49,212 bases of DNA from Bacteroidota bacterium. Its GTDB lineage: Bacteria; Bacteroidota; Bacteroidia; Chitinophagales; Chitinophagaceae. The DNA lies in contig JABDAN010000013.1 of NCBI GenBank assembly GCA_013289175.1, forward strand, positions 8,998-58,209. The letters are read 5' to 3'. Made by a program: the position numbers and the translations under genes. Below, in pieces: positions 7,619-19,944 of this stretch. The notes beneath the pieces were generated by a model. It saw only the letters and a list, made by a program, of their open reading frames with translations, ran no database searches and was not told the DNA's origin. How positions within the stretch are numbered: the first letter of the stretch is position 1; each line of letters starts with the position of its first letter.

Positions 7619-10000
7619 ATGATCAAAAATGTATTGCGAATTGCCCTCCGCAATTTTAGAAAAGACAAATGGTTCAGTCTGATAAATATTATGGGTCTTA
7701 CCATTGGAATCACGTTCAGCCTGTTTTTAGTCTTTTATGTAAGAGACGAGCTCAGCTACGACCGGTTTAACCAATATGCGGATCGCATATACCGTATCGT
7801 CACCTACGTTACAGAAAAAGACAAGAATACAAATTTCACTTATACGGAAGCACCGCTGGCTTTTCAGATGAAAAAAGATTATCCAGAAGTGCAAGAAGCC
7901 GCCCGTATGTTGAGCAGAGAAAGGACGCTCTTTAAAATAGGTGATAAAAGTTTCTTTGAAACAAAAGCATACTACGCCGACAGCAATATTTTTAAAATAT
8001 TTACTGCAAAGTTTCTGGAGGGTAATCCTAATACAGCACTCGTTGAACCGCGTAGCGTTGTCATAAACAGAACGACAGCTGAAAAATATTTTGGTAAAAA
8101 TGTGTCGGCTGTTGGCAAAACGCTACACACGGTGTATGACCTTTATAAGGTCACCGGTGTTTTTGAAGATATCCCTGAAAATACCCATATCCGCTACAAT
8201 ATGCTCATCTCCATGTCCTCAGATTCAAACAACTATAATCAGAACTGGGGTAGTTTTAATTATTTCACTTACGCTTTGTTGAAGCCCGGAGCAAGCCAGC
8301 AGGCATTTCAGAAAAAAGTGGATCAGACGGTTGCTAAATATGTGAAGCCCGTATTTGATCCATTTGGGGTGAAGATGCGTTTTTATGCACAACCTATTGT
8401 TGATATTCACCTTCATTCAGATCTGGAAAGAGAACCGGAAGAATTGGGAAGTATGTCATATATATGGACTTTTTCCGCAGTGGCGTTTTTTATGTTGCTC
8501 ATCGCCTGCATCAACTATATGAATCTTACTACGGCAAGATCTGCGCGAAGAGCAAAAGAAATAGGCATCAGAAAAGTTACGGGCTCAAAACGCGGACAGC
8601 TGATCGCACAGTTTTTAGGAGAATCCGTACTTACTGCGATGGCCGCTTTGATACTCAGCTTCTTACTGATCGTATTGTTGTTTCCTCTCTTCAATTCGAT
8701 ATCCGGAAAATCGTTTTCGATTACGACCCTTTTACAGCCTTTCAATATATTGTTAATGCTTAGCATTGGTTTATTTACCGGCCTAATCGGTGGAAGCTAT
8801 CCTGCTTTTTATTTGTCGTCATTTCAGCCCGTGAGTATTTTAAAAGGCGCGCTATCAAAAGCATCTGGTAATATCAATCTTCGTAGGACGCTGGTTGTAT
8901 TACAATTCTCCATTTCCATGGTCATGCTGATTTCTACCTGGATCGTTTACTCGCAGCTAGAATATATGAGAAATAAAGACCTGGGATTTGACAAAAATCA
9001 GGTTATGACGGTGGTGGTAAATACAGGTAAATACGAGCCGGAAAAGATAGTTGCAATGGGTAATGATTTTCGCGGATTGTCGTCAGTGGCTGATGTTGGC
9101 ATTGGAGGTTCCTATCCCGGATCAGGAAATACAAGTTTGAATCTTTTCAGGGTGCAAACCAAAACGGGGCATTTAGATAAGGGGGTTGAATGTTATGGCG
9201 TAGATGCCCATTATTTTACAGCACTCGGAATCAAGGTTGTTGCAGGACGGAATTTTGAGCCAGCAGACACTTCACACGGTACCATGGTCAACGAAAGTTT
9301 TGCCAGACATTTTGGATGGGACCAGCCTATTGGTCAGCGTATTACTTTCCCCGGTGATACGTCTGCCAAAGATTATCTCGAAGTAGTCGGTGTCGTAAAG
9401 GATTTTAATCAAAATTCTCTTTATAACCCAATTCAACCGCTTTTGTTTTTTTATGGCCCGTTGAACAACACATATATAATGAAGCTGAAGCCGGGAAATT
9501 CAAGCAATACGCTGTCTCAAGTGGAAGGCGTCTGGAAAAAATATTTCCCCGCTTTACCCTTTGAATTTAAATTTTTGGATGAAGGATTGAATTCGCAGTA
9601 CGTAGCTGACCAGAAACGAGGAAAAATTTTCGCTTCGCTGGCCATCCTAACAATCATTATTACTTGTCTGGGCTTGCTGGGTTTAACGGCTTATACCACG
9701 CAACAAAAACAAAAAGAAATCAGTGTGCGCAGGGTGCTTGGTGCCAGTGTCGGACAAATCATTGTGTTAATTACCAGGAATTATTTCTGGCTTTCATTGA
9801 TTGCCGCATCCATCGCTTTCCCTGTCGCCTATTATTTCATGAGAAACTGGATGAAACTATTTTCATATAGTCCGGGCATATCCGCCGTTCCATTTATTTT
9901 TTCAGCCCTAGTTATCATAATAACGGCCCTGCTTACTGCAACCTTTCATTCAACAAAAGCGGCACTTTCAAAGCCGTCTAATAATTTGAGATCGGAATAA
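7619..10000 (+). CDS. MacB/FtsX-type ABC transporter permease
   Basis: A full-length 793-residue permease with the architecture usual in Bacteroidota. It starts with the amphipathic IRIALRNFRKDKWFSLINIMG block and TM1 (about residues 21-41), then a periplasmic MacB_PCD domain, a first FtsX core with three TM helices (about 280-430, containing the conserved coupling region RARRAKEIGIRKVTGSKRGQL), a TM helix near 425-445, a second periplasmic domain and a second FtsX core (about 670-785, with the matching KQKEISVRRVLGAS block). It would work in the inner membrane with a separate LolD/MacB-like ATPase, which is not nearby. The gene is followed convergently by the acylation operon. Substrate is unknown. 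Confidence 0.92.
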   Translation: MIKNVLRIALRNFRKDKWFSLINIMGLTIGITFSLFLVFYVRDELSYDRFNQYADRIYRIVTYVTEKDKNTNFTYTEAPLAFQMKKDYPEVQEAARMLSRERTLFKIGDKSFFETKAYYADSNIFKIFTAKFLEGNPNTALVEPRSVVINRTTAEKYFGKNVSAVGKTLHTVYDLYKVTGVFEDIPENTHIRYNMLISMSSDSNNYNQNWGSFNYFTYALLKPGASQQAFQKKVDQTVAKYVKPVFDPFGVKMRFYAQPIVDIHLHSDLEREPEELGSMSYIWTFSAVAFFMLLIACINYMNLTTARSARRAKEIGIRKVTGSKRGQLIAQFLGESVLTAMAALILSFLLIVLLFPLFNSISGKSFSITTLLQPFNILLMLSIGLFTGLIGGSYPAFYLSSFQPVSILKGALSKASGNINLRRTLVVLQFSISMVMLISTWIVYSQLEYMRNKDLGFDKNQVMTVVVNTGKYEPEKIVAMGNDFRGLSSVADVGIGGSYPGSGNTSLNLFRVQTKTGHLDKGVECYGVDAHYFTALGIKVVAGRNFEPADTSHGTMVNESFARHFGWDQPIGQRITFPGDTSAKDYLEVVGVVKDFNQNSLYNPIQPLLFFYGPLNNTYIMKLKPGNSSNTLSQVEGVWKKYFPALPFEFKFLDEGLNSQYVADQKRGKIFASLAILTIIITCLGLLGLTAYTTQQKQKEISVRRVLGASVGQIIVLITRNYFWLSLIAASIAFPVAYYFMRNWMKLFSYSPGISAVPFIFSALVIIITALLTATFHSTKAALSKPSNNLRSE

Positions 10001-10159
10001 AAACTAGTATCTGCAATTGTGTTCAGTCGGTCTTTTACTCGGAACTTTTGTATAGCCTAAATAATACAGGGCATTATATTCAGTATAAAGAACATAAAGA
10101 AAGGCATGTAAAAAGTAGTGCGTCTGGCTTTATTCGATTCAGTCAGTTCGACCAGCAAG

Positions 10160-10297
10160 TTACCATTGCAAATAATGGAACCGGCCTGCCTGAAAATCTG
10201 AGGCAAAAAGAACAAGTATGATAAGAAGCAGGTACCAGATGAAGATCAGCAGGTTTGCAACAGGTTTCCGGAAATATTTCAGTAACCAGGAATACAT
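10160..10297 (-). CDS. DltX-like acyl-shuttle microprotein
   Basis: A 45-residue protein, too short for normal ORF cut-offs. Its ATG overlaps the TGA of the MBOAT gene by one base (TGATG), implying translational coupling. It has a basic N-terminus (K7, R10, K11), one transmembrane segment at about residues 14-32, and a short exposed tail ending in FHYLQW, with Tyr42 at the third position of the last six residues. In the D-alanylation pathway, DltX is a single-pass microprotein of similar size ending in a hexapeptide of the form F-x-Y-x-x-F, whose Tyr carries the acyl group between the MBOAT DltB and DltD (established knowledge). Size, topology, exact C-terminal placement of the motif and operon position all agree. 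Assignment by homology is inference; sequence identity is too low to be certain by eye. Confidence 0.75.
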   Translation of the reverse strand: MYSWLLKYFRKPVANLLIFIWYLLLIILVLFASDFQAGRFHYLQW

Positions 10298-11409
10298 CAG
10301 AAAAATAAATTTTTAAAGTTCTCACTCAAAGAAGAAATGCCTTCTGAACCGATTATAATACAGCTGAAAGAAAATAAATGAAACACCCAGAGCCTTCCAA
10401 TCCAGCGCCCTGCCGGATGCTGATTAATAAAGACAGATAGCGCAGGTAATTTTTTTCTCGAGGTCACGGTTAACAAAATAAGCAGGCCCTGAATGATGCC
10501 CCAGACAATATATCGAAAAGAAATTTCATGCCATAACGCAAGCACAAGCATTGCACATATTAGTGCAAACCAGCGGTTTCTACCCAGCGCAAGCAAGGGA
10601 TAGAATACATAATCGCGACACCAGCTTGAAAGGGAAATATGCCAGCGTTGCCAGAACTCCTGCATATTCGTGGCCATAAAAGGGGCATTAAAATTTTCCA
10701 TCACCTTGATACCCCACAGAAGGCCCGATCCGATGGCCAGGTCAGAAAATCCCGCAAATTGAAAATACGCGTTCCCTGTAAAGGCAACCACTTCCAGATA
10801 CAAACGAAGCCAAAAATGATTGGTCTGATGGGCAATCTGTGGAATTTCCAAGCTGCATAAAAAATTACCCAAAAACTTAATTTTCACAAATCCGTAGAGT
10901 ATTCGCTCCAGTCCTTCGGAAAAATAGTTTGCATTCCATTTCATTCTACGCAAACTCCTTTTAAATTCCGGCATCCGGTGAATCGGTCCGATAAGCATCA
11001 CCGGTAAAAAAAGTAAATACTGGAAATAGGAAGCCAAAGAAGGTTTTTGTATCTGTCCCTTATAAACCTCAAAAGCCACATGCACCTGGCGGAAAGAATA
11101 AAAGGACAATCCCAGTGGAATCAACCAATGCTGTACACCGGCTTCAGTTTTATAAAAAACCAGGGGCAGTAAAGGAAGAATGCAAGTGATTTTGTAACCG
11201 ATTCTCCCGGACTGAAAAAAATCAAATTGCCAGATCAACCATTGACTGATTGCAACCAACAACATTAGGAGAAGAGACAAGGGAGCAATAAAGGACAAAA
11301 CCAGGAAGGTAATGCCCGCCATACAATTTGCCTTCCAAAACACCGGAACCCGCCAGATCAGCGGCGTTGTAAGGAATACGATAAGCACAAACAGCGCCTG
11401 CAATTTCAT
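10297..11409 (-). CDS. MBOAT-family O-acyltransferase (DltB-like)
   Basis: A 370-residue multi-pass membrane protein. The ATG at 11409 overlaps the stop of the upstream SGNH gene as ATGA, which decides the start over a longer frame from 11442. Family signs are the RQVHVAFEVYKG region, the LPVMLIGPIHRMPEF block, the NFNAPFMATNMQEFWQRWHISLSSW segment (His257), and the catalytic histidine in ALWHEISF (His294). About ten hydrophobic helices are visible. In Dlt and alginate systems this enzyme takes an acyl group from a cytoplasmic thioester and passes it across the membrane. The protein is somewhat shorter than DltB and ends FKNLFF without a Tyr-containing shuttle motif of its own, fitting the presence of the separate 45-residue shuttle directly downstream. 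Confidence 0.92.
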   Translation of the reverse strand: MKLQALFVLIVFLTTPLIWRVPVFWKANCMAGITFLVLSFIAPLSLLLMLLVAISQWLIWQFDFFQSGRIGYKITCILPLLPLVFYKTEAGVQHWLIPLGLSFYSFRQVHVAFEVYKGQIQKPSLASYFQYLLFLPVMLIGPIHRMPEFKRSLRRMKWNANYFSEGLERILYGFVKIKFLGNFLCSLEIPQIAHQTNHFWLRLYLEVVAFTGNAYFQFAGFSDLAIGSGLLWGIKVMENFNAPFMATNMQEFWQRWHISLSSWCRDYVFYPLLALGRNRWFALICAMLVLALWHEISFRYIVWGIIQGLLILLTVTSRKKLPALSVFINQHPAGRWIGRLWVFHLFSFSCIIIGSEGISSLSENFKNLFF

Positions 11410-12260
11410 GATTTTCCCAATTGTATGCAGAGAGCTCTGCAAAAAAATGAGGAAAATATGCTGTTTCCTTTTTTGTTCATATGGAGAAAATCATAAAAAT
11501 CAGATTTCATCAATAATAAATGTCCGTCCTCATAAGTGAATGAAATCTTTTTCTTTAAAAATTGAAGATTGTTCCTGAAGTTTAGTGTATCTGGACTATT
11601 CCATTTTTTGATTTCCTCCAGTTCTTCGATCGGAAAATTGATAAATAAAAATTGTGTCCCTTTTGACTGCCAGATACCGGCCAGCTCCCGGAATGACCTG
11701 ATTTCATTGGTATCAACCAGCCCATTTCTGAATCTTCCAACTTCAGGTCTCGTTATCGCGTCAAACACAGGCATCGAGTCAGGTGCATAATAAATTGCCC
11801 TGTGTCTCCATAAAATCATGTCGTTGTAACTCTGCATATAAAGCGTCCGTTGGTCGAAACTAAATGGCTTGTAAAAAAATAAATTCGCTTCCAAAACTAC
11901 CAGATCGGGATGCACATTGCGTAGTATGGGTAACTCGTTAATGATTTCGGATATCGTGGCGCTGCGCTTCCAGAGCTTTAGAACTTTTACATCCCGGTTG
12001 CAAAATTGATGAATATCTTTTTCGATGCTATCTGAGGCAAAAATGTCGCTTTCAACCAATGAACTGCCGATAATGAGTACCACAGGTTTTCCATAGGTCT
12101 GCCGAAAGCCTTTGTCCAAATACACAATGCGGCTGGTGAGCATGGATAACCGCCTAGACTGTTCGCGGAAATACACAACGGTTCCGATAGCGATGATGGC
12201 AATCAACAGGAAAATCCATATCCGCAAGGGCGCCATGATTTTTACCGATGACTTATCCAT
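11406..12260 (-). CDS. Membrane-anchored SGNH-type acyltransferase/esterase (DltD-like role)
   Basis: A 284-residue protein with one N-terminal transmembrane helix (about residues 11-30) preceded by basic residues, placing the catalytic domain outside the cytoplasm. The nucleophile block is LIIGSSLVES (Ser66/Ser67), close to the GSSE-type block of DltD, and the C-terminal D-x-x-H is DFLHMNKKG (Asp257, His260). The domain between is alpha/beta. DltD accepts the acyl group from DltX and gives it to the polymer; the same role is inferred here. It overlaps the preceding gene by 8 bases and the following MBOAT gene by 4. It could alternatively resemble AlgJ/AlgX-type O-acetyltransferases, but the carrier-protein fusion upstream favours Dlt-like logic. 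Confidence 0.82.
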   Translation of the reverse strand: MDKSSVKIMAPLRIWIFLLIAIIAIGTVVYFREQSRRLSMLTSRIVYLDKGFRQTYGKPVVLIIGSSLVESDIFASDSIEKDIHQFCNRDVKVLKLWKRSATISEIINELPILRNVHPDLVVLEANLFFYKPFSFDQRTLYMQSYNDMILWRHRAIYYAPDSMPVFDAITRPEVGRFRNGLVDTNEIRSFRELAGIWQSKGTQFLFINFPIEELEEIKKWNSPDTLNFRNNLQFLKKKISFTYEDGHLLLMKSDFYDFLHMNKKGNSIFSSFFCRALCIQLGKS

Positions 12261-14070
12261 TTTTTTCTTTAATGAGCTCCGTTGCTCTCCGGATACTGTT
12301 CATGGTAATAATTTCCGCCGTATTAAAGCGGACCTTAAAATGTTCTTCAAGTGAAGTGATGAAACCAAGGTGAGCCAGAGAATCCCAGCCTGCAATGGTC
12401 TGCGAGGTATCCCGAATGGAGAGTGCTGAAACCGGCACCTGAAAAGAATCTGCGGCAATGGTCAACACGTCGTTTTCAAATAGATTACCCTGAATTAACA
12501 TTTGGGCGGTCTGCTGTTTCGCTAATAATTCTCTTAGCTGGTTGAGTTGTACTTTACCTGAAACTCCTTTCGGAAGCTCCTGGAGAATGATAATTCGATG
12601 AGGAACTTTCTTTTCTTCCAGTGAAATACGGCATTTTTCTACGAGGTCAGTTCCTGTCGTATTAAATCCTGGTTTTAAAACAACGACAGCAAACAGCTTC
12701 TCACCAAATACTTCATCCGGCATGCCGACAGCACAGGCTTCTTGAACCGGTTCCAGTTTCAACAGACATTCGGTTATTTCTTCCGGCTGGATATTTATAC
12801 CGCCAGAAATGATGAGATTCTTTTTTCTACCGCGTATCGTTACAAAACCGCCTTCATCCATCGAAGCCAGATCACCCGTTAGAAACCAGCCGTTGCGGAA
12901 CACTTCATCAGTCATTGCAGGAGAGCCCCAATATTGTTTCATAATGTGATCGCCCATTAAACATAACTCGCCTGTTTCCCCCAATGGAACTGAATCAAAA
13001 GAATCGTTTACAATACAGATTTTGCAGTCAACCGGTTTTCCAATTGAATGTTTCTTATAAGTTTCACTCAATGGACCACTAAACAGACTGCCCGCAACGG
13101 TTTCGGTGAGCCCGTAAATATTTGACAAACGAATTTTAAATGTAGATTCGAAAGCATCCCATAATCCCGCGTCTAAATGTGCGGACACGGAAAGCATGGC
13201 CCTGAATTCCGGATACAGGAAACTGTCCTCATAGTTTTCAGCAAAGGAAAGTATCATATGCAGCATGGCTGGAACCACGAAGATGTGAGAGATACTGTTG
13301 GCGTAACCATAGTCCAGGAATTCTGGTATTTTTTTTAGGCTGAATCGGAATGGTTTGTGCCAACTGCATCCGGTTTGGGCTGCCAAAATAGGACCTTGTA
13401 TGCAGCCATCGGCATGACAAAGAAATAAAAGATTCAACAAACTGCTTTCTTCATTCAGGGAATAAACCTTCTCCAGGGTAAGAAGATGCGCCTCCAGATT
13501 TAACCGGGTGATGGCAACCCCTTTGGAATCGGAAGTAGTGCCCGAAGTGAAAATAATATAAGCGATATGATCCTCCGTTAGTGGATCTTGGCTAATGTCT
13601 CGTGGTATTGCATTTTCCAGCAGCCGGACATAATCATTGGCGGGAGTTTCCGACCTGGTTTTTTGCAAGAATTTTCCGAGGATACCCGCGCTTGTCCCTT
13701 TTTCTTTCAGGTAAGAAATAACCTGGACGTCTGAATCTGTGCCAAGCTTCCAGCTCTCTAAGGTTTCCTTATCGGCAATAATTACAGCCGGACTGGTTTT
13801 GCTGATTATACTGTTGGCCCTGGGAGACTTAGACTCCGGGTCTGTAATGACAACCGTGATACCATTCAGAAGGGCTGATATAAAGAGCGCGCTCATTTCC
13901 GCTTCATCGGAAATAGCAAGCAGAAGTCTGTCTTGGTGCTGCAATTTCAGTTGCTTAAATAAACCGGAGACCTGACTGATCTTTTTTTTAAGCCAGTCAT
14001 AGGTATAACTTTTATGGCCGTCCTGTAAAAATATTTTGGTCGGGGGTTGTTTAAATAGTTTTTCTAACAT
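12253..14070 (-). CDS. ANL adenylation enzyme fused to an acyl/peptidyl carrier domain (DltA-DltC-like fusion)
   Basis: A 605-residue two-domain protein. Residues 1 to about 515 are an acyl-/aminoacyl-AMP ligase: P-loop AYIIFTSGTTSDSKGVAIT (about 168-186), NIYGLTETVAG (about 316-326), FLTGDLASMDEGG (about 390), hinge GRKKNLIISGGINIQPEE (about 411) and the catalytic lysine in LPKGVSGKVQL (near 503). Residues about 530-605 are a carrier domain with GWDSLAHLG; Ser564 is the expected phosphopantetheine site. It would activate a carboxylate with ATP and load it on its own carrier arm. In Dlt operons these are separate DltA and DltC. It overlaps its neighbours by 20 and 8 bases. The P-loop is slightly divergent (TTSDSKG). 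Substrate cannot be read from the sequence. Confidence 0.9.
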   Translation of the reverse strand: MLEKLFKQPPTKIFLQDGHKSYTYDWLKKKISQVSGLFKQLKLQHQDRLLLAISDEAEMSALFISALLNGITVVITDPESKSPRANSIISKTSPAVIIADKETLESWKLGTDSDVQVISYLKEKGTSAGILGKFLQKTRSETPANDYVRLLENAIPRDISQDPLTEDHIAYIIFTSGTTSDSKGVAITRLNLEAHLLTLEKVYSLNEESSLLNLLFLCHADGCIQGPILAAQTGCSWHKPFRFSLKKIPEFLDYGYANSISHIFVVPAMLHMILSFAENYEDSFLYPEFRAMLSVSAHLDAGLWDAFESTFKIRLSNIYGLTETVAGSLFSGPLSETYKKHSIGKPVDCKICIVNDSFDSVPLGETGELCLMGDHIMKQYWGSPAMTDEVFRNGWFLTGDLASMDEGGFVTIRGRKKNLIISGGINIQPEEITECLLKLEPVQEACAVGMPDEVFGEKLFAVVVLKPGFNTTGTDLVEKCRISLEEKKVPHRIIILQELPKGVSGKVQLNQLRELLAKQQTAQMLIQGNLFENDVLTIAADSFQVPVSALSIRDTSQTIAGWDSLAHLGFITSLEEHFKVRFNTAEIITMNSIRRATELIKEKNG

Positions 14071-16888
14071 CAGGCAGTTTGTGATTTGGTGCTTTCAGGT
14101 AATTATCTAGTAATTTTTTCTTAAGTATTTTATTGTGATTTCCACGTGGTATTGTTTTTACTATCTCAATTACATTGGGAACGGCATAATTTCCAATCTG
14201 TTTTCGAAGGGCTGATTTTATCAACACAATCAGTTCTATTTCTTTTTCAGTGTACCGGGGGACCACAAAAAGCACAACGGATTCTTTTTCTTTTTCCAGG
14301 AGGGGACAAACTGCCCAGTCTGTCAGTTGGCTTATTTCCCCCAATACTTCATCCAACGCATTTATTTCGATACGCTCACCGGTTGGCAGTTTAACGAAGT
14401 CGGAGAGCCGACCATAGAGACTAATACTTCCATCCTCATTTTGAATAGCGAGATCGCCCGTATGAAACCAGCCATGATGAAGGCAAGCTGCTGTCGCTTC
14501 TTCATTTCTAAAATACCCAGAAAAAATACCTGCGCCATATATACAGAGTTCTCCTTTCACCCCCGTCTTTAGGGGGTTGCCAGATTTGTCGATGATTTTA
14601 ATTAAACAGTCTATCGGGATACCAATGCTGTGATCAGCTGACGGTGAAAATCCTTTCGGCTCAGCTATACAGAGGCCAGATGTTTCCGTAAGCCCATAAT
14701 AATTCATCAGCTGTATACCCGATTGCTCCTGCCATTTGTTTCTCAATTCCTCGGGAAGTGTATTGCCTGTGCAAAGCGCCAGGCGGATCGGGTGGTTTTG
14801 AGCGAATAGTTTTTCATCCGTCCGTGCCGTAGCCAGCAATTGTCTGTAAAAGATGGGGTTGGCCGACAGAATCGTAATTTTTTCTTCCAATATTGTTTTG
14901 GCGTATTGGTATATACTTCGGTTTTTGTCCGGTATTATACAACAAGCGCCGATTTCCGCCGAAGCAACCGTAGCATGGCGAAGACCACTCATGGTTTCCA
15001 ATCCGCCAACAGCCAGGTAACGGTCTGATTTTTTCCAGTGATACGTCTCCGTCATACAGCGACCAGACCTAATCAATTGCCCGTGCGTGAGTGGAATCCC
15101 CTTAGGATTTCCGGTAGAACCGGTGGTCCATAAAATGACCGCAATATCGTCTCCTGTTATATTTGAATTTTCTGATAAATCAGTACCGGGACAATTGCTT
15201 AGCCAATTTTCAAATGAACTGGCGGGGCTATAGGCGGGTTCATCGGTGAGATCCAACATGATGGAATCGCATCCTGCTGATTGAATGGATTCGTGAAGAG
15301 CGGGCTCTGCAAAGGCAAGACGGGGTTTCAGGAGGCGAATATATTCCTCGATGCGTGGTTGGGCTTCCCGGGGGGAAACGGGCACCACTACGATGCCCAG
15401 GATAGTCGCGGCCCAGAAAACCAGGAGGATTTCTGGATGCAGGTCCGCGCAAAGCAGTACCCTATCTCCTTTTTTTAATCCCTGGTGCACGAGCGCTTTC
15501 TGTATTAGGGCAACTAGTTCATCTGCCTGGCTATAGTTTAGAAATTCATTTCCCATTTTTATATAGGTCTCCTCGGAATAAGATTCGACGGCCTGTTTCC
15601 AGAAAAAGCCAAGTTGTTGTTCTTTTCTTTCGAGAATATATTTTTGGTGACCCAGTAATGACTGCAAACGAAATCCCGCTTCATCTACGGGTACAGTTTG
15701 GGCGAGTTCCAAATCCCAGAGTGTTCGGAGGATCTGTTGCATATCCGGTTTTGGGATACCGGTTATTTTTAAAATCTCATGAAGGGTCTTCCCCTGTCCC
15801 GCCCAATAAAGGATTTCCACCACCGTTTGGCTTATCGGTTTACCGGTGCTTTGCCGTATTCGGTGGGCATATACCGCGTGATGTTCGAGCAATTCTTCAA
15901 TGAGCGGACCATATTCCTTTATATTGAATTCAATTTGGTGGTTGATGGGATGAATACTGAGCAGCGGATTTTGTAAAAGGTAACTTGCTTCCCATTCGGC
16001 TTGTTCATGACCACGCCAGGGCCTGAGAACAGGCTGATCTTTGTCCGGAATCCAGGCAATACACGCATTGTAGTTGGGATGGTTTGGTTCTGATATCAAT
16101 AATTTTTCTTTATCAGTACTATCCTGGTTCCAGTTAAAAGTAGCCGGTTCGGATAAAACATACCCTTTTCGGTAGGTTGTTTCTGCCATCTGCTCAAAAA
16201 GAAAATCATATTCCATTCCGTGAAGCTGACGACAGCCGCGATCAAAATAAGGTTCCGGCTCACTATTGGTCAGATGAACATGTGGAAAGAGAATGGGAGC
16301 CTGAGGGCCGGCGATTCGGTTCAATTCGGAAATGAGTTCTGGTTGATTGAATCTATGAAGCAGGTCCATTCCGATGATGGCCGAAATGCTGTTTGATTCA
16401 AATGGCATGGGTCTCAGAAAATCTGTGAATACGACGGTATGGTTTAGCCGCCTTTCAGATGACATCCAGTAGTCAAACCCCTTATACCCAAGAATATCTT
16501 TATCTCCCTCCCAAACCGTAATGATCTGTTGGTCGGGGAACCATCCGGAGAGCATGCTGGCTGTCCAGCCACTACGATCCCAGAGATTGAGGATGATATC
16601 TCCGGGTTTGACCTTTTCTTTCACATAAGATATGAACGGAAAAAGAGCCTTGAAAGCTTCGTTAAAAGGCTGAAAGACAGCGTATAAGTCGATGGATGGG
16701 TTCCGGCTTTTCTGGCGGAGAAACCGTTGGTATTTGTATTTATTACGTGAAAGATAGTCAGTAAGTGATTCCAACTCCCGCTTTTGCCGGGGTAGGATCA
16801 GGTCTTTTTTATCACAAAAATGCAAATGACCGATATAGGGATGGGCACTGGCCTGTTTAGGGTATATTTTCCAACCGGAATATGCCAT
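14051..16888 (-). CDS. Methyltransferase-like / winged-helix-like / ANL adenylation fusion protein
   Basis: A 945-residue, apparently cytoplasmic protein that opens the operon. Residues about 75-235 look like a class I SAM-methyltransferase fold: strand IILNLWDRSG (about 94), a second acidic strand, and the late motif AIIGMDLLHRFNQPELISELNRI. The usual glycine-rich motif I is degenerate (WDRSG), so activity is doubtful. Residues about 340-410 resemble a winged helix (VVEILYWAGQGKTLHEILKITGIP). Residues about 430-935 are an ANL ligase: LWTTGSTGNPKGIPLTHG (about 581), NYYGLTETSGLC, FHTGDLAIQNEDG (about 804), GRLSDFVKLPTGERIE and a C-terminal lysine region IPRGNHNKILKKK (about 911). It lacks a carrier domain. 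It may activate the acyl precursor or load the carrier of the next protein, which it overlaps by 20 bases. I do not recognise this architecture. Confidence 0.82.
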   Translation of the reverse strand: MAYSGWKIYPKQASAHPYIGHLHFCDKKDLILPRQKRELESLTDYLSRNKYKYQRFLRQKSRNPSIDLYAVFQPFNEAFKALFPFISYVKEKVKPGDIILNLWDRSGWTASMLSGWFPDQQIITVWEGDKDILGYKGFDYWMSSERRLNHTVVFTDFLRPMPFESNSISAIIGMDLLHRFNQPELISELNRIAGPQAPILFPHVHLTNSEPEPYFDRGCRQLHGMEYDFLFEQMAETTYRKGYVLSEPATFNWNQDSTDKEKLLISEPNHPNYNACIAWIPDKDQPVLRPWRGHEQAEWEASYLLQNPLLSIHPINHQIEFNIKEYGPLIEELLEHHAVYAHRIRQSTGKPISQTVVEILYWAGQGKTLHEILKITGIPKPDMQQILRTLWDLELAQTVPVDEAGFRLQSLLGHQKYILERKEQQLGFFWKQAVESYSEETYIKMGNEFLNYSQADELVALIQKALVHQGLKKGDRVLLCADLHPEILLVFWAATILGIVVVPVSPREAQPRIEEYIRLLKPRLAFAEPALHESIQSAGCDSIMLDLTDEPAYSPASSFENWLSNCPGTDLSENSNITGDDIAVILWTTGSTGNPKGIPLTHGQLIRSGRCMTETYHWKKSDRYLAVGGLETMSGLRHATVASAEIGACCIIPDKNRSIYQYAKTILEEKITILSANPIFYRQLLATARTDEKLFAQNHPIRLALCTGNTLPEELRNKWQEQSGIQLMNYYGLTETSGLCIAEPKGFSPSADHSIGIPIDCLIKIIDKSGNPLKTGVKGELCIYGAGIFSGYFRNEEATAACLHHGWFHTGDLAIQNEDGSISLYGRLSDFVKLPTGERIEINALDEVLGEISQLTDWAVCPLLEKEKESVVLFVVPRYTEKEIELIVLIKSALRKQIGNYAVPNVIEIVKTIPRGNHNKILKKKLLDNYLKAPNHKLPDVRKTI

Positions 16889-17619
16889 ATAATTCTATTA
16901 TGGAACCTGACCGCTGGTTTCTTTTGCATTTGACTTGGATGACGGAATCTGGATCTTCTATGGGAGTATTGGAAGGCAGAATTGGGGGGAGAGAATATAA
17001 ATCTATAAAAAATATGTGGTAATTGCAAGCCTGCTTCCAGTTAATCCATTTAAGATTAATAGATTATCAACGACTCTTTAAAGAGTTTAGGCAAGCACAG
17101 AAACGATTGGTCTAAAAAACGAGTAAAGCTCCCAATTTAAAATCCTCTTCGGCTTAAGTTAAGATTTATGAAATCATAAATAATTTAATTTAAAAATCCA
17201 CCGTGAATATTAAAATAAAGAAAAGATGAGGAGCAACAAAACAGTTTAACACGATTTGTATTGATAAATCAGAGGAATTATTCAATTCAAAAGATCCTGG
17301 CCCAAGCAAAGCCATATTAAATCAAAAAACACAAATTATTTTTCAAAGGCGTACCATATTTTATTATTCAACCAAGATTCTGCGAGTATTCGACCTCCCA
17401 ATAAAATTAGAACAGTTTGGGGTAAAGAAAGTCTTCAATTAAATTCTGATGGCAAGTCGAAACTATAATCTCAGACAAGAAGTGGCAAATTCCCTAATTT
17501 AATATTTAACTTTTCTAATGTAAAAATCATTTATAAGTTTAAGATTGATTCGAATCCTTAAGTCTAAGGCTTAATTATCCAATTTCTTTTTTTTCATTAC
17601 TTCTAACTGACATTACCTT
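16889..17619. other. A+T-rich divergent intergenic region
   Basis: About 730 bases between the acylation operon (minus) and the 17620 gene (plus), so it should hold both promoters. I found no good TAnnTTTG match for either. A perfect 14-base palindrome ACTCTTTAAAGAGT lies at 17073-17086 and could be an operator. No open frame with a convincing protein is present; the minus-strand frame reaching 17028 is only an overlap of the operon's first gene. Confidence 0.5.
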
Positions 17620-19944
17620 TTGACCCGAATTAGTACGCACTTTCTATTTTTATTGTATTTCATCTGTTCTAACGCCCAGGCACAGCCGGATACTTCCATC
17701 CTAATTTTAAAGGGCAGGATAACAAATCAGGTCACCTCCGAACCTGTGACTTATGCAACCATCAGTCTTGTAAACAGCAGCTATAACACACTCACGAATG
17801 AAAATGGTCAATTTATCTTCAAAATACCAGCCACCATCAACAAACGCCAACTGCAGATTACGCATGTAGGATACCGGTCTGTTACCTTACTAGCTTCTGA
17901 AGATAGTTTATATTCGATCCAACTGGAGGAACAGCCATCGCTACTTAAAGAAGTAGTGGTTAAAAAAATAAACCCTCTTGAACTCCTTAAAAATGCCATT
18001 GCGAAAATTCCTGATAACTACTCCACTCAGCCGTACCGTATAGGCGGTTTTTACCGAATGACCGGTCGCAAAGAAAAAAGGATCATCGACCTCTCGGAAG
18101 CCGTATTTAATATCTACTACGAATCTTATCAAAGAAAAAACAGTCAATTCAACTTGGTGAAGTCGCGCGTGGATAAAGACCTGACTGCTTTTAACGGCGC
18201 CGATAATGTGAGTATGGGCCTGGATCCTTCCGCAGTAACAAGCATAGACATACTAAGTGACGTGAAGGAATCAGAACTTCTGAGTGATAAAGGATTGGCA
18301 GCCCATGACTTCGTTTTCAAAGGAGTGGTGAATTATAATGCGCGACCAGCTTATGAAATCGACTTTGATCAGAAAGACGGTATAAAAAAATCGTTATTTA
18401 AAGGGAAGATCCTATTGGATGTAGACGATCTGGCATTTTTGGAATTTGACATCCACTTGAGTCCGAAAGGCATTGCCTATTACGACTGGGGATTTTTTAT
18501 GAAAATGATGTTGAGCATGGCACACGTGAAGGCCAATATTTTGGCAGACAATAAAACCATTACCTACCGAAAATACGGGGGAAAATATTATTTACACCGG
18601 GCTAACAATGAAGGGTTGATTTATCTGGCAGGTGGAAACAAACATTTTGTACTGGACCCACTGGCAACCAAAATAAACTTTCTCGTGACGAGCATTGATA
18701 CCCTGAATGCAACACCTTTTCAAAAAGATGAAATACTACGAAACAAATCCAGTATTGAATCCAGAAGTACGGTGATTCGAGATTCCCGTGACGGTCCGGA
18801 TCGCTCCGATACTACTGATCTTTTCTGGGGAAGCTACAATCTAATATTACCGGAATACAATGTAGACTCTGCCGTTCGGCAAATTGAGGTAAACAATACT
18901 ACGCTGAATTATAAGAACCAGCTTGCGAAATATCTAAGAAAGAATAGTAGTGATAAAATAAAAGGCATTGACTCCGTACTCAGTTTTTACCATGGGAAAA
19001 ATCAGTTCAATGGTACAGTCCTGGTTCAAGACAACGGTAAACTGATTTACGAAAAGGGTTTTGGAATGGCAGACAAAGAAAAGTCTATACCCAATAATGG
19101 AAACACAAAATTTAAGATCGGATCTACTTCCAAATCCTTTACGGCCATGATGATTATGCTGTTAGAGCAAGCCAACAAAATCAGTGTCAATGATACTATT
19201 GGTAAATTCCTGCCCGGCTATATTCACGGAAATATTACGATTCAGCAATTGCTCACGCATCAGTCCGGTATTCCCAATTACACAGACAATCCGGAATATC
19301 TGGTAAAAATCCTGAGCAAAAGATATACCCCTGACGAACTGGTATTTAAATTTTGCAGCGACTCACTTGAATTCCTACCCGGCACCCAGTTTAGTTATAG
19401 CAATTCCGGTTATGTAATTCTGGCAGATATTATTGAAAAGATAACCGGAGAAAAATACGCTGATTTTTTGCAGGAACAAATTTTTCTTCCCCTCGGCATG
19501 AAGAACTCTTATTTTGTCTCTGCCACAGGAATGGATAGCCTGGCAAAGGGATATATTAATGGTGAACCTGAAAATTCCTATCCCGTGGAAAATGTAATTG
19601 GTGCGGGAGGCATCACTTCAACAGCTGTAGACCTGCAGATATGGGCGAATGCTATGATGAATGGGAAATTATTACCCCCTGAAAAAATGCAGGAACTTTT
19701 TATACCCCGGGTTGAATGGAAAGAGTGGAATGCTTCCTATGGATACGGATGGATGATCGACCGAAATATATTTCAGGTATCCTCTAAGCACTCGGAAATT
19801 TATCATCCCGGAACAGAATTTGGTTTTTTTGATATGCTGATTTTTCAGCCTGATAAAGAAATTGTGCTTGTTCTGTTGAATAACACCGGTGATTTTCCAA
19901 GATTTGATATCACCGATTTAATTCTAACCGAATTGAACCGATAA
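17620..19944 (+). CDS. Secreted CarboxypepD_reg-like domain / serine beta-lactamase-family hydrolase fusion
   Basis: A 774-residue secreted protein. It starts with TTG at 17620: an in-frame TGA lies four codons upstream and the TTG gives a complete signal peptide ending NAQAQ near residue 22. Residues about 28-115 are a CarboxypepD_reg-like beta-sandwich (LILKGRITNQVTSEPVTYAT, ending VVVKK), as found at the N-terminus of TonB-dependent receptors. Residues about 115-430 form an uncharacterised region rich in beta-strands. Residues about 445-770 are a class C beta-lactamase-type hydrolase with S-T-S-K at 502-505, YSN at 593-595 and HPG at 729-731, the H-x-G form typical of D-aminopeptidase/esterase members. 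Cellular site is probably periplasm or outer-membrane surface. Substrate is unknown; a peptidase or esterase is likely. Confidence 0.88.
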   Translation: MTRISTHFLFLLYFICSNAQAQPDTSILILKGRITNQVTSEPVTYATISLVNSSYNTLTNENGQFIFKIPATINKRQLQITHVGYRSVTLLASEDSLYSIQLEEQPSLLKEVVVKKINPLELLKNAIAKIPDNYSTQPYRIGGFYRMTGRKEKRIIDLSEAVFNIYYESYQRKNSQFNLVKSRVDKDLTAFNGADNVSMGLDPSAVTSIDILSDVKESELLSDKGLAAHDFVFKGVVNYNARPAYEIDFDQKDGIKKSLFKGKILLDVDDLAFLEFDIHLSPKGIAYYDWGFFMKMMLSMAHVKANILADNKTITYRKYGGKYYLHRANNEGLIYLAGGNKHFVLDPLATKINFLVTSIDTLNATPFQKDEILRNKSSIESRSTVIRDSRDGPDRSDTTDLFWGSYNLILPEYNVDSAVRQIEVNNTTLNYKNQLAKYLRKNSSDKIKGIDSVLSFYHGKNQFNGTVLVQDNGKLIYEKGFGMADKEKSIPNNGNTKFKIGSTSKSFTAMMIMLLEQANKISVNDTIGKFLPGYIHGNITIQQLLTHQSGIPNYTDNPEYLVKILSKRYTPDELVFKFCSDSLEFLPGTQFSYSNSGYVILADIIEKITGEKYADFLQEQIFLPLGMKNSYFVSATGMDSLAKGYINGEPENSYPVENVIGAGGITSTAVDLQIWANAMMNGKLLPPEKMQELFIPRVEWKEWNASYGYGWMIDRNIFQVSSKHSEIYHPGTEFGFFDMLIFQPDKEIVLVLLNNTGDFPRFDITDLILTELNR

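What the first reader, a model, noticed from the sequence alone, without database searches (positions are those of the whole stretch)
10160..10297. Unlisted 45-residue microprotein ending in a DltX-type acyl-shuttle hexapeptide
Seen: a 46-codon frame whose ATG shares one base with the MBOAT stop (TGATG), a basic N-terminus, one membrane helix, and FHYLQW as the exact last six residues with Tyr42 in third position. Known: DltX microproteins end in F-x-Y-x-x-F and their Tyr carries the acyl group from the MBOAT to the SGNH transferase; in many other systems the motif is fused to the MBOAT instead. Inference: this is the separate shuttle of a Bacteroidota acylation system, and the neighbouring MBOAT indeed lacks a motif of its own. 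Gene callers with usual length limits would miss it.
Basis: partly seen in the sequence, partly recalled or inferred. Interest (0 to 1): 0.9.

Follow-up and report, generated by a model that had tools for sequence, protein, structure and literature searches.

The report
Separate acyl-shuttle microprotein in Bacteroidota
A 45-residue protein encoded next to a membrane acyltransferase in several Bacteroidota keeps the same phenylalanine and tyrosine near its very end and likely carries an acyl group on that tyrosine to a partner enzyme that would attach it to the cell envelope, a task that related bacterial systems are thought to give to the tail of the acyltransferase itself.

Summary
The frame is real, on the minus strand (10297 down to 10160), 45 residues, overlapping the MBOAT stop by one base. 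It is the fifth gene of an overlapping operon: MT-like-ANL, ANL-carrier, SGNH, MBOAT, microprotein. Nine further loci carry it with a short MBOAT that has no motif of its own; seven of these show all five genes. Of 65 distinct family sequences, 63 end exactly in F-x-Y-x-x-[W/L/M]; two look frameshifted. Selection is purifying (omega about 0.07-0.1; omega 1 is 27-48 log units worse). Of 27 ordinary MBOATs fetched from related genomes, 25 end in F-[IF]-Y-F-Q-F and two are cut by contig ends. In 395 genomes of the class, split-type MBOAT and microprotein were found in the same four. The reading as a separate acyl shuttle is well supported; acyl-Tyr transfer is untested. By sequence it is not Pfam DltX, its last residue is Trp rather than Phe, and the ligase resembles acyl-CoA ligases more than DltA, so the cargo is probably not D-alanine. 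New variant of a known kind.

The parts
10160..10297 (-). microprotein (proposed acyl shuttle, 'X'), 45 residues; basic N-terminus, one hydrophobic helix-length stretch, C-terminal FHYLQW
10163..10180 (-). codons of the terminal hexapeptide F40-H-Y42-L-Q-W45; F and Y present in 63 of 65 distinct family sequences
10297..11409 (-). DltB-like MBOAT, 370 residues from its ATG, without C-terminal FxYxxF; His257 and His294 counted from the ATG (256 and 293 in the alignment) invariant in 10 of 10 split MBOATs aligned
   Evidence: Pfam PF03062 87.3 bits; DltB 6bug E 7.6e-34
11406..12260 (-). SGNH-type transferase (DltD/PatB-like role), N-terminal helix, G-[ST]-S and D-x-x-H conserved
   Evidence: no Pfam family over cut-off; AlphaFold model pLDDT 82 with SGNH-hydrolase fold matches incl. 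PatB 8tlb; motifs kept in 10 of 10 aligned
12253..14070 (-). ANL adenylating enzyme fused to a phosphopantetheine carrier domain (G-W-D-S-[LM] serine kept in 10 of 10 aligned)
   Evidence: Pfam AMP-binding 179.8 bits, AMP-binding_C 52.5, PP-binding 16.5 (below its 20.8 cut-off)
14051..16888 (-). second ANL enzyme with an N-terminal methyltransferase-like region (that label is a reading of the sequence)
   Evidence: Pfam AMP-binding 206.4 bits; alignment of 9 loci; N-terminal model of low confidence, pLDDT 49; no PDB relative by sequence at E up to 1

Best explanation
This is a conserved 45-residue microprotein that likely carries an acyl group on Tyr42 from the neighbouring MBOAT acyltransferase to the neighbouring SGNH transferase, doing as a separate protein what ordinary Bacteroidota MBOATs are thought to do with their own C-terminal tail. 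Proposed path: the ANL-carrier protein would activate a carboxylic acid and hold it as a thioester on its own carrier domain (inferred from domains and kept catalytic residues). The MBOAT would move the acyl group through the inner membrane to the periplasmic Tyr42 of the microprotein, whose basic N-terminus would stay in the cytoplasm (inferred from DltB/DltX and PatA). The acyl-Tyr would then swing to the SGNH serine, which would pass the group to an unknown envelope polymer (inferred). The second, methyltransferase-like ANL protein probably prepares or selects the acyl precursor (weakest step). Shown by sequence here: the operon, the conserved microprotein with F-x-Y at its exact end, the missing tail motif of its MBOAT, purifying selection, and co-occurrence.
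For: Five overlapping genes in the window; all five seen in 8 loci counting the window: G005 (second ANL cut at the contig start), G022, Flavisolibacter ginsengisoli, G636, G529, G806, G148. Microprotein present in 10 of 11 loci with a split-type MBOAT, the eleventh (G019) being cut by its contig end inside the MBOAT gene. 63 of 65 distinct sequences end F-x-Y-x-x-[WLM]. Omega optimum 0.07 (4 sequences) and 0.1 (10), omega 1 worse by 27 and 48 log units, kappa fixed at 2. 25 of 27 ordinary MBOATs end F[IF]YFQF, the other 2 are cut by contig ends. Split and fused MBOATs fall on two sides of one branch, support 100/100. The same four of 395 class genomes carry split MBOAT and microprotein. In G529 the order is MBOAT-SGNH-microprotein and the microprotein start overlaps the SGNH stop, so it travels with the system and not merely with the MBOAT 3' end. 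Its profile aligns in register with fused MBOAT tails: score 22.5, 0 of 150 block shuffles as high. MBOAT best solved relative is DltB; the partner has an SGNH-like fold. PatA auto-acetylates the Tyr of its tail motif and PatB accepts it (PMC12148441, abstract and passages).
Against: No expression, acylation or interaction data. Not matched by Pfam DltX, nor similar to B. thuringiensis DltX beyond shuffles (61 of 200 shuffles as high). The tail alignment owes part of its score to the membrane helix: with only the last nine columns shuffled 2 of 100 reach the observed score. The last residue is Phe in 0 of 63. Two database members (P0055, P0056) lack the motif, probably through frameshifts, and were left out of the profile used. 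The operon is not whole everywhere: G157 shows only MBOAT and microprotein, with an opposite-strand frame that reads like a transposase overlapping the MBOAT frame's start and no close SGNH partner in its genome (best profile match E 6e-7 to an unlinked 198-residue frame; G148 partner 7e-85); Chryseolinea has no second ANL gene in the 1.2 kb that its record holds upstream. Two ordinary MBOATs have the variant tail PIYLQF. A free carrier gene lies near 2 of 20 fused-tail MBOATs, so carrier and separate shuttle are not strictly linked. Five loci (G148, G157, G636, G529, G806) were first found with the microprotein profile, which biases the count; three of them were recovered independently by the MBOAT profile. 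Genome context of the 58 database proteins was not seen.
Confidence: 0.86

Rival explanations
1. The microprotein is a structural or stabilising subunit of the MBOAT-SGNH complex, and its tyrosine is needed for packing rather than for carrying the acyl group.
For: Tyr22 in the membrane stretch is invariant in the 31-row alignment too and the hydrophobic stretch is conserved, as in a bound subunit.
Against: The near-invariant F-x-Y lies at the very C-terminus in the same spacing as the shuttle motif of fused MBOAT tails, and the MBOAT of these operons lacks that motif.
Confidence: 0.09
2. The system is a true Dlt pathway: the microprotein is a diverged DltX and the cargo is D-alanine. (This shares the shuttle mechanism with the best explanation; the odds overlap.)
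For: Same parts list as dlt (ligase, carrier, MBOAT, SGNH, microprotein); MBOAT closest in the PDB to DltB.
Against: The ligase is nearest to oxalyl-, malonyl- and fatty-acyl-CoA ligases and gramicidin synthase, DltA not among the best 60 of 65 PDB sequences at E up to 1e-20 nor the best 25 of 110 NCBIfam models; TIGR04091 (DltB) scores 150-181 bits for five split MBOATs against a cut-off of 375, much as for five fused ones (154-169 bits); no PF12459 match.
Confidence: 0.12
3. A short hydrophobic peptide unrelated to acylation (toxin-like or leader peptide) that happens to sit at the operon end.
For: Small, basic, hydrophobic.
Against: In all ten loci seen it lies with the split-type MBOAT, in two gene orders, with a fixed C-terminus and omega about 0.1.
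Confidence: 0.02
4. Chance open frame or sequencing break of a fused MBOAT tail.
For: The microprotein has the architecture of a fused tail and follows the MBOAT directly in 9 of 10 loci.
Against: The same separate frame with its own ATG recurs in nine further loci and 55 further distinct database sequences, and after the SGNH gene in G529.
Confidence: 0.01

Closest known systems
DltX of the Gram-positive dlt operon (Pfam PF12459, earlier DUF3687)
   Same: About 45-50 residues, basic N-terminus, one membrane stretch, C-terminus ending in F-x-Y-x-x and a large hydrophobic residue, encoded with ligase, carrier, DltB-like MBOAT and SGNH (DltX facts: PMC5541007 passages; PMC12148441 passages).
   Different: No profile or sequence similarity; last residue W/L/M, not F; gene at the 3' end of the operon, not 5' of dltA; carrier fused to the ligase; ligase not DltA-like; a second ANL gene in 8 of the loci.
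PatA/PatB and other MBOAT-SGNH pairs with the hexapeptide fused to the MBOAT
   Same: MBOAT plus SGNH; acyl-Tyr shuttle motif of the same spacing; the microprotein profile aligns with fused tails.
   Different: Here the motif is on its own protein and a carrier-loading ligase belongs to the operon; the 25 fused frames are 468-554 residues long against 372-404 for the split ones and lie on the other side of the tree.
dlt genes of Gram-negative bacteria (Dickeya, Pectobacterium)
   Same: Gram-negative dlt-type genes, and a DltX with the same topology but no sequence similarity is mentioned (PMC5541007 passages; the Dickeya paper PMC3544676, passages, names dltBAC and dltD).
   Different: Those are described as D-alanine systems with separate dltA and dltC; no Bacteroidota system of this make-up was seen in the papers found. 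Sequences of the Gram-negative DltX were not available for comparison.

Membership tests
DltX (PF12459) | Match to the curated profile | tested here: not met
   Window protein: no Pfam or NCBIfam family; 0 of 31 family members match DltX at E up to 10, HMMER's filters on; 0 of 148 phylum genomes over cut-off, own genome without a match, 3 weak matches below cut-off not examined, while B. subtilis and L. lactis controls ring.
DltX (PF12459) | F-x-Y at positions -6 to -4 from the C-terminus | tested here: met
   63 of 65 distinct sequences.
DltX (PF12459) | Terminal Phe of F-x-Y-x-x-F | tested here: not met
   W in 58, L in 3, M in 2, F in 0 of 63.
DltX (PF12459) | Encoded with ligase, carrier, MBOAT and SGNH | tested here: met
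   9 of 10 loci; G157 shows only the MBOAT.
DltX (PF12459) | Tyr carries the acyl group from MBOAT to SGNH | not testable with these tools
   Needs biochemistry.
D-alanine Dlt pathway | Ligase of the DltA kind | tested here: inconclusive
   Best solved relatives are oxalyl-CoA ligases and others, DltA not among the best 60 shown; substrate pocket not resolved.
MBOAT | PF03062 profile and the conserved His | tested here: met
   87.3 bits against cut-off 27; both His columns invariant in 10 of 10.
SGNH hydrolase-like transferase | SGNH fold with block I Ser and block V Asp/His | tested here: met
   Most of the 23 Foldseek matches at E up to 0.001 are SGNH/GDSL hydrolases, with PatB at rank 21 (E 6.6e-4); TM-scores only 0.35-0.62. 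G-x-S and D-x-x-H kept in 10 of 10.
MBOAT with fused C-terminal shuttle motif (PatA kind) | FxYxxF at the end of the MBOAT | tested here: not met
   The window MBOAT and its nine relatives have none.

The most novel reading that the evidence does not exclude
A Bacteroidota envelope-acylation pathway, neither Dlt nor PatAB, loads a non-alanine acyl group made by a self-loading ligase-carrier fusion and passes it through a stand-alone tyrosine shuttle that arose by detachment of an MBOAT tail independently of DltX: a second origin of the separate acyl-shuttle microprotein.
Probability: 0.45. Interest if true: 0.75.

Novelty: new variant of a known kind. Interest (0 to 1): 0.62.

Why it matters
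A 2025 paper states that MBOAT/SGNH pathways other than Dlt lack both a carrier protein and a DltX-like microprotein (PMC12148441, passages). This operon family has both, in a Gram-negative phylum, with a ligase unlike DltA and a microprotein without sequence similarity to DltX. It would show that a stand-alone acyl-Tyr shuttle is not confined to teichoic acid D-alanylation, gives a compact system for reconstitution (five genes, carrier fused to ligase), and points to an unknown acyl decoration of the Bacteroidota envelope. It also adds a recognisable small-protein family that the databases searched list, where named, as hypothetical.

Tried and rejected
Tried: Pfam and NCBIfam on the microprotein, no family; of 31 members scanned at E up to 10, a few weak matches to unrelated families, best DUF2705 at 0.0069 in 2 members, none to DltX. 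PDB sequence search with the microprotein, no hit at E up to 10. Direct comparison with B. thuringiensis DltX, not above shuffles. TIGR04091 scores as a discriminator between split and fused MBOATs: useless, ranges overlap. Structure model of the first 415 residues of the second ANL protein: pLDDT 49, too poor to search, so the methyltransferase-like label rests on reading the sequence. Rfam on 9500-17700: nothing. Promoter and terminator scan: not above shuffles. Microprotein against plasmids: no match. Weak microprotein hits of the phylum search (13 of 16 genomes, E 8.7e-5 to 0.01): the frames around six (L044-L049) were read and none looks like an MBOAT locus, without a family search; seven (L050-L056) were not looked at. 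The three weak PF12459 hits were not looked at. Short MBOAT frames in the capped list were checked as possible split MBOATs without microprotein: of six, three are cut by contig ends, two end PIYLQF, one breaks at ambiguous bases while another frame there ends FIYFQF; none scores like a split MBOAT (159-202 bits against 458 for G157) and none has a microprotein. Papers: PMC5066359 and the 2023 Nature Microbiology Dlt paper are not held; nothing from them is used.

Rejected: chance frame (recurrence, omega); sequencing break of a fused tail (recurrence, second gene order); toxin-like peptide (with the MBOAT in all ten loci seen); plain D-Ala Dlt (ligase unlike DltA, though not excluded).

Full report
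What is there. The finding gives no strand; the frame is on the minus strand, 10297 to 10160, 45 residues, and shares one base with the stop of the MBOAT gene (TGATG). The bases read on the plus strand are broken by stops. Going upstream on the minus strand the genes overlap one another: microprotein 10160-10297; MBOAT 10297-11409; SGNH-type protein 11406-12260; ANL-carrier fusion 12253-14070; second ANL protein with a methyltransferase-like N-terminus 14051-16888.

The parts. MBOAT: Pfam PF03062, 87.3 bits; nearest solved structure DltB, E 7.6e-34; two His columns of the active-site region are invariant in 10 of 10 split MBOATs. SGNH: no Pfam family, but the AlphaFold model (6-row alignment, pLDDT 82) matches mostly SGNH/GDSL hydrolases and, at rank 21, PatB of Campylobacter jejuni, with E-values 4e-5 to 7e-4 for these ranks and modest TM-scores; G-[ST]-S and D-x-x-H are kept in 10 of 10 aligned proteins. 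ANL-carrier: AMP-binding and AMP-binding_C over cut-off, carrier domain 16.5 bits against a cut-off of 20.8, but the phosphopantetheine serine (GWDS) is kept in 10 of 10. Its nearest solved relatives are oxalyl-CoA ligases, then gramicidin synthase, fatty-acyl and malonyl-CoA ligases; DltA is not among the best 60 shown of 65.

Conservation. Relatives of the MBOAT were sought in 148 related genomes and in genome contigs (six loci, the sixth a fused Omnitrophota MBOAT). Three same-genus genomes and Flavisolibacter ginsengisoli have close orthologues (59-72% identity) and a Chryseolinea genome a more distant one (45%). Four of these five carry the microprotein behind the MBOAT; in the fifth (G019) the contig ends inside the MBOAT gene. 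A profile of three microproteins found two more genomes among 395 of the phylum, G148 and G157, in another family; in that family 2 of 4 genomes held have it. A profile of 31 found G636, G529 and G806 among 395 of the class. All ten split MBOATs that reach their end lack the tail motif, and all ten loci have the microprotein. In G529 the order is MBOAT, SGNH, microprotein, and the microprotein start overlaps the SGNH stop. Eight loci counting the window show all five genes. Chryseolinea has no second ANL gene in the 1.2 kb upstream that its record holds. G157 has only MBOAT and microprotein: an opposite-strand 431-residue frame that reads like a transposase overlaps the start of its MBOAT frame, and the best SGNH match elsewhere in that genome is weak (E 6e-7), so this operon may be broken.

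Family. Two protein-database rounds gave 24 and 57 hits, 58 proteins in all. Together with the ten loci this makes 65 distinct sequences; 63 end exactly in F-x-Y-x-x-hydrophobic: last residue W 58, L 3, M 2. The two others, P0055 and P0056, depart just before the motif and look frameshifted. Three entries (P0023, P0057, P0058) are N-terminally shortened gene calls. In the six pairs of the four closest genes the differences by codon position are 13-20, 7-8 and 21-27; synonymous sites are saturated. A codon model with kappa fixed at 2 has its optimum near omega 0.07 for four and 0.1 for ten sequences, and omega 1 is worse by 27 and 48 log units.

The contrast with fused MBOATs. Of 27 ordinary MBOATs fetched as best matches from related genomes, 25 end in F[IF]YFQF on frames of 468-554 residues; the other two are cut by contig ends. 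The window's own genome has such a fused MBOAT too (L002). Six further MBOAT frames of under 450 residues in the (capped) list were checked: three are cut by contig ends, two end PIYLQF, one breaks at ambiguous bases with FIYFQF in another frame; none is of the split type. In a tree of 10 split and 26 fused MBOATs (25 plus the Omnitrophota one) the two kinds lie on either side of one branch (100/100); the program warns of long branches, among them G148 and G157. In the class sample the split profile gives four genomes at E 1e-155 or better, then a gap to 1e-64; the same four genome handles carry the microprotein. The two calls report the same sample size and appear to be the same draw, but I could not compare the full lists, and their first looks scored at most 18 and 4 candidates per genome. 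A profile comparison (P0055 and P0056 left out) aligns the microprotein's helix and hexapeptide in register with the fused tails: score 22.5, probability 58-60, 0 of 150 block shuffles as high, mean 10; with only the last nine columns shuffled the mean is 16 and 2 of 100 are as high. So the resemblance is real but partly due to the helix. Around 20 of the 25 fused MBOATs (8.9-14.5 kb each, some cut by contig ends) the operon's profiles find an SGNH-like protein in 6, a free carrier in 2 and the ANL enzyme in none.

How it would work. In the Dlt pathway a carrier-bound D-Ala goes by DltB to the Tyr of DltX and then to the Ser of DltD; in PatA the Tyr of the fused tail motif is auto-acetylated and the acetyl-Tyr peptide serves PatB (PMC12148441, abstract and passages). 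By analogy the ANL-carrier protein loads an acyl group, the MBOAT passes it to Tyr42 on the periplasmic side, and the SGNH protein takes it from there to an envelope polymer. The analogy for the microprotein rests on the sequence evidence above; loading, transfer, cargo and acceptor are inferred. Cargo other than D-alanine is favoured by the ligase relatives; in G148 a class-III-aminotransferase-like frame (my reading of the sequence, no family search run) overlaps the start of the second ANL frame (L067), a hint at an amino-acid cargo that I did not follow.

Known or new. By sequence the microprotein is not a DltX: no profile match in any of 31 members, none over cut-off in 148 genomes with positive controls ringing, no excess over shuffles against B. 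thuringiensis DltX. 'Works like' is therefore kept apart from 'belongs to'. PMC5541007 (passages) says that dltX was found in 809 species, 805 of them Firmicutes, and that a DltX in Gram-negative species has the same topology without sequence similarity; so a separate shuttle in a Gram-negative is not unheard of. PMC12148441 (passages) says MBOAT/SGNH pathways other than Dlt lack carrier and microprotein. Seven paper searches (listings) showed no paper on a Bacteroidota system of this kind; most subscription papers are not held, including the 2023 paper that, as I recall, introduced the mechanism. I rate it a new variant of a known kind.

Noticed in passing
L065:8156-8542 (G529): A 129-residue frame between ANL-carrier and MBOAT matches the C-terminal quarter of the SGNH profile (56.5 bits), although a full SGNH gene follows the MBOAT: looks like a remnant of an SGNH gene in the usual position, or a second truncated one.
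   Followed up: partly
L108:137-1429 (G157): An opposite-strand 431-residue frame that reads like a transposase overlaps the start of the MBOAT frame; no ANL, carrier or SGNH gene is seen beside this MBOAT and microprotein, so the operon may be broken there.
   Followed up: partly
L067:8324-9700 (G148): A frame that reads like a class III aminotransferase overlaps the start of the second ANL frame, perhaps a hint to an amino-acid cargo.
   Followed up: no
L092:4885-5130 and L107:5006-5248: Free carrier-protein genes lie close to fused-tail MBOATs (2 of 20 loci): carrier-dependent acylation with a fused shuttle may also exist in Bacteroidota.
   Followed up: no
L111 and L112 (G088, G075): Two ordinary MBOATs end in PIYLQF: the tail Tyr is kept but Pro stands in place of the first Phe of the motif.
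   Followed up: no
L075, L076, L077, L082: Very long MBOAT frames (936-974 residues) in one family (f86) of the class, about twice the usual length.
   Followed up: no
window 14051-16888: The N-terminal 415 residues of the second ANL protein are strongly conserved among near relatives (LNLWDRSGW, LLH) but match no Pfam family and no PDB chain.
   Followed up: partly
P0055, P0056: Two database members depart from the family just before the hexapeptide, as after a frameshift; no DNA was available to tell sequencing error from decay.
   Followed up: no
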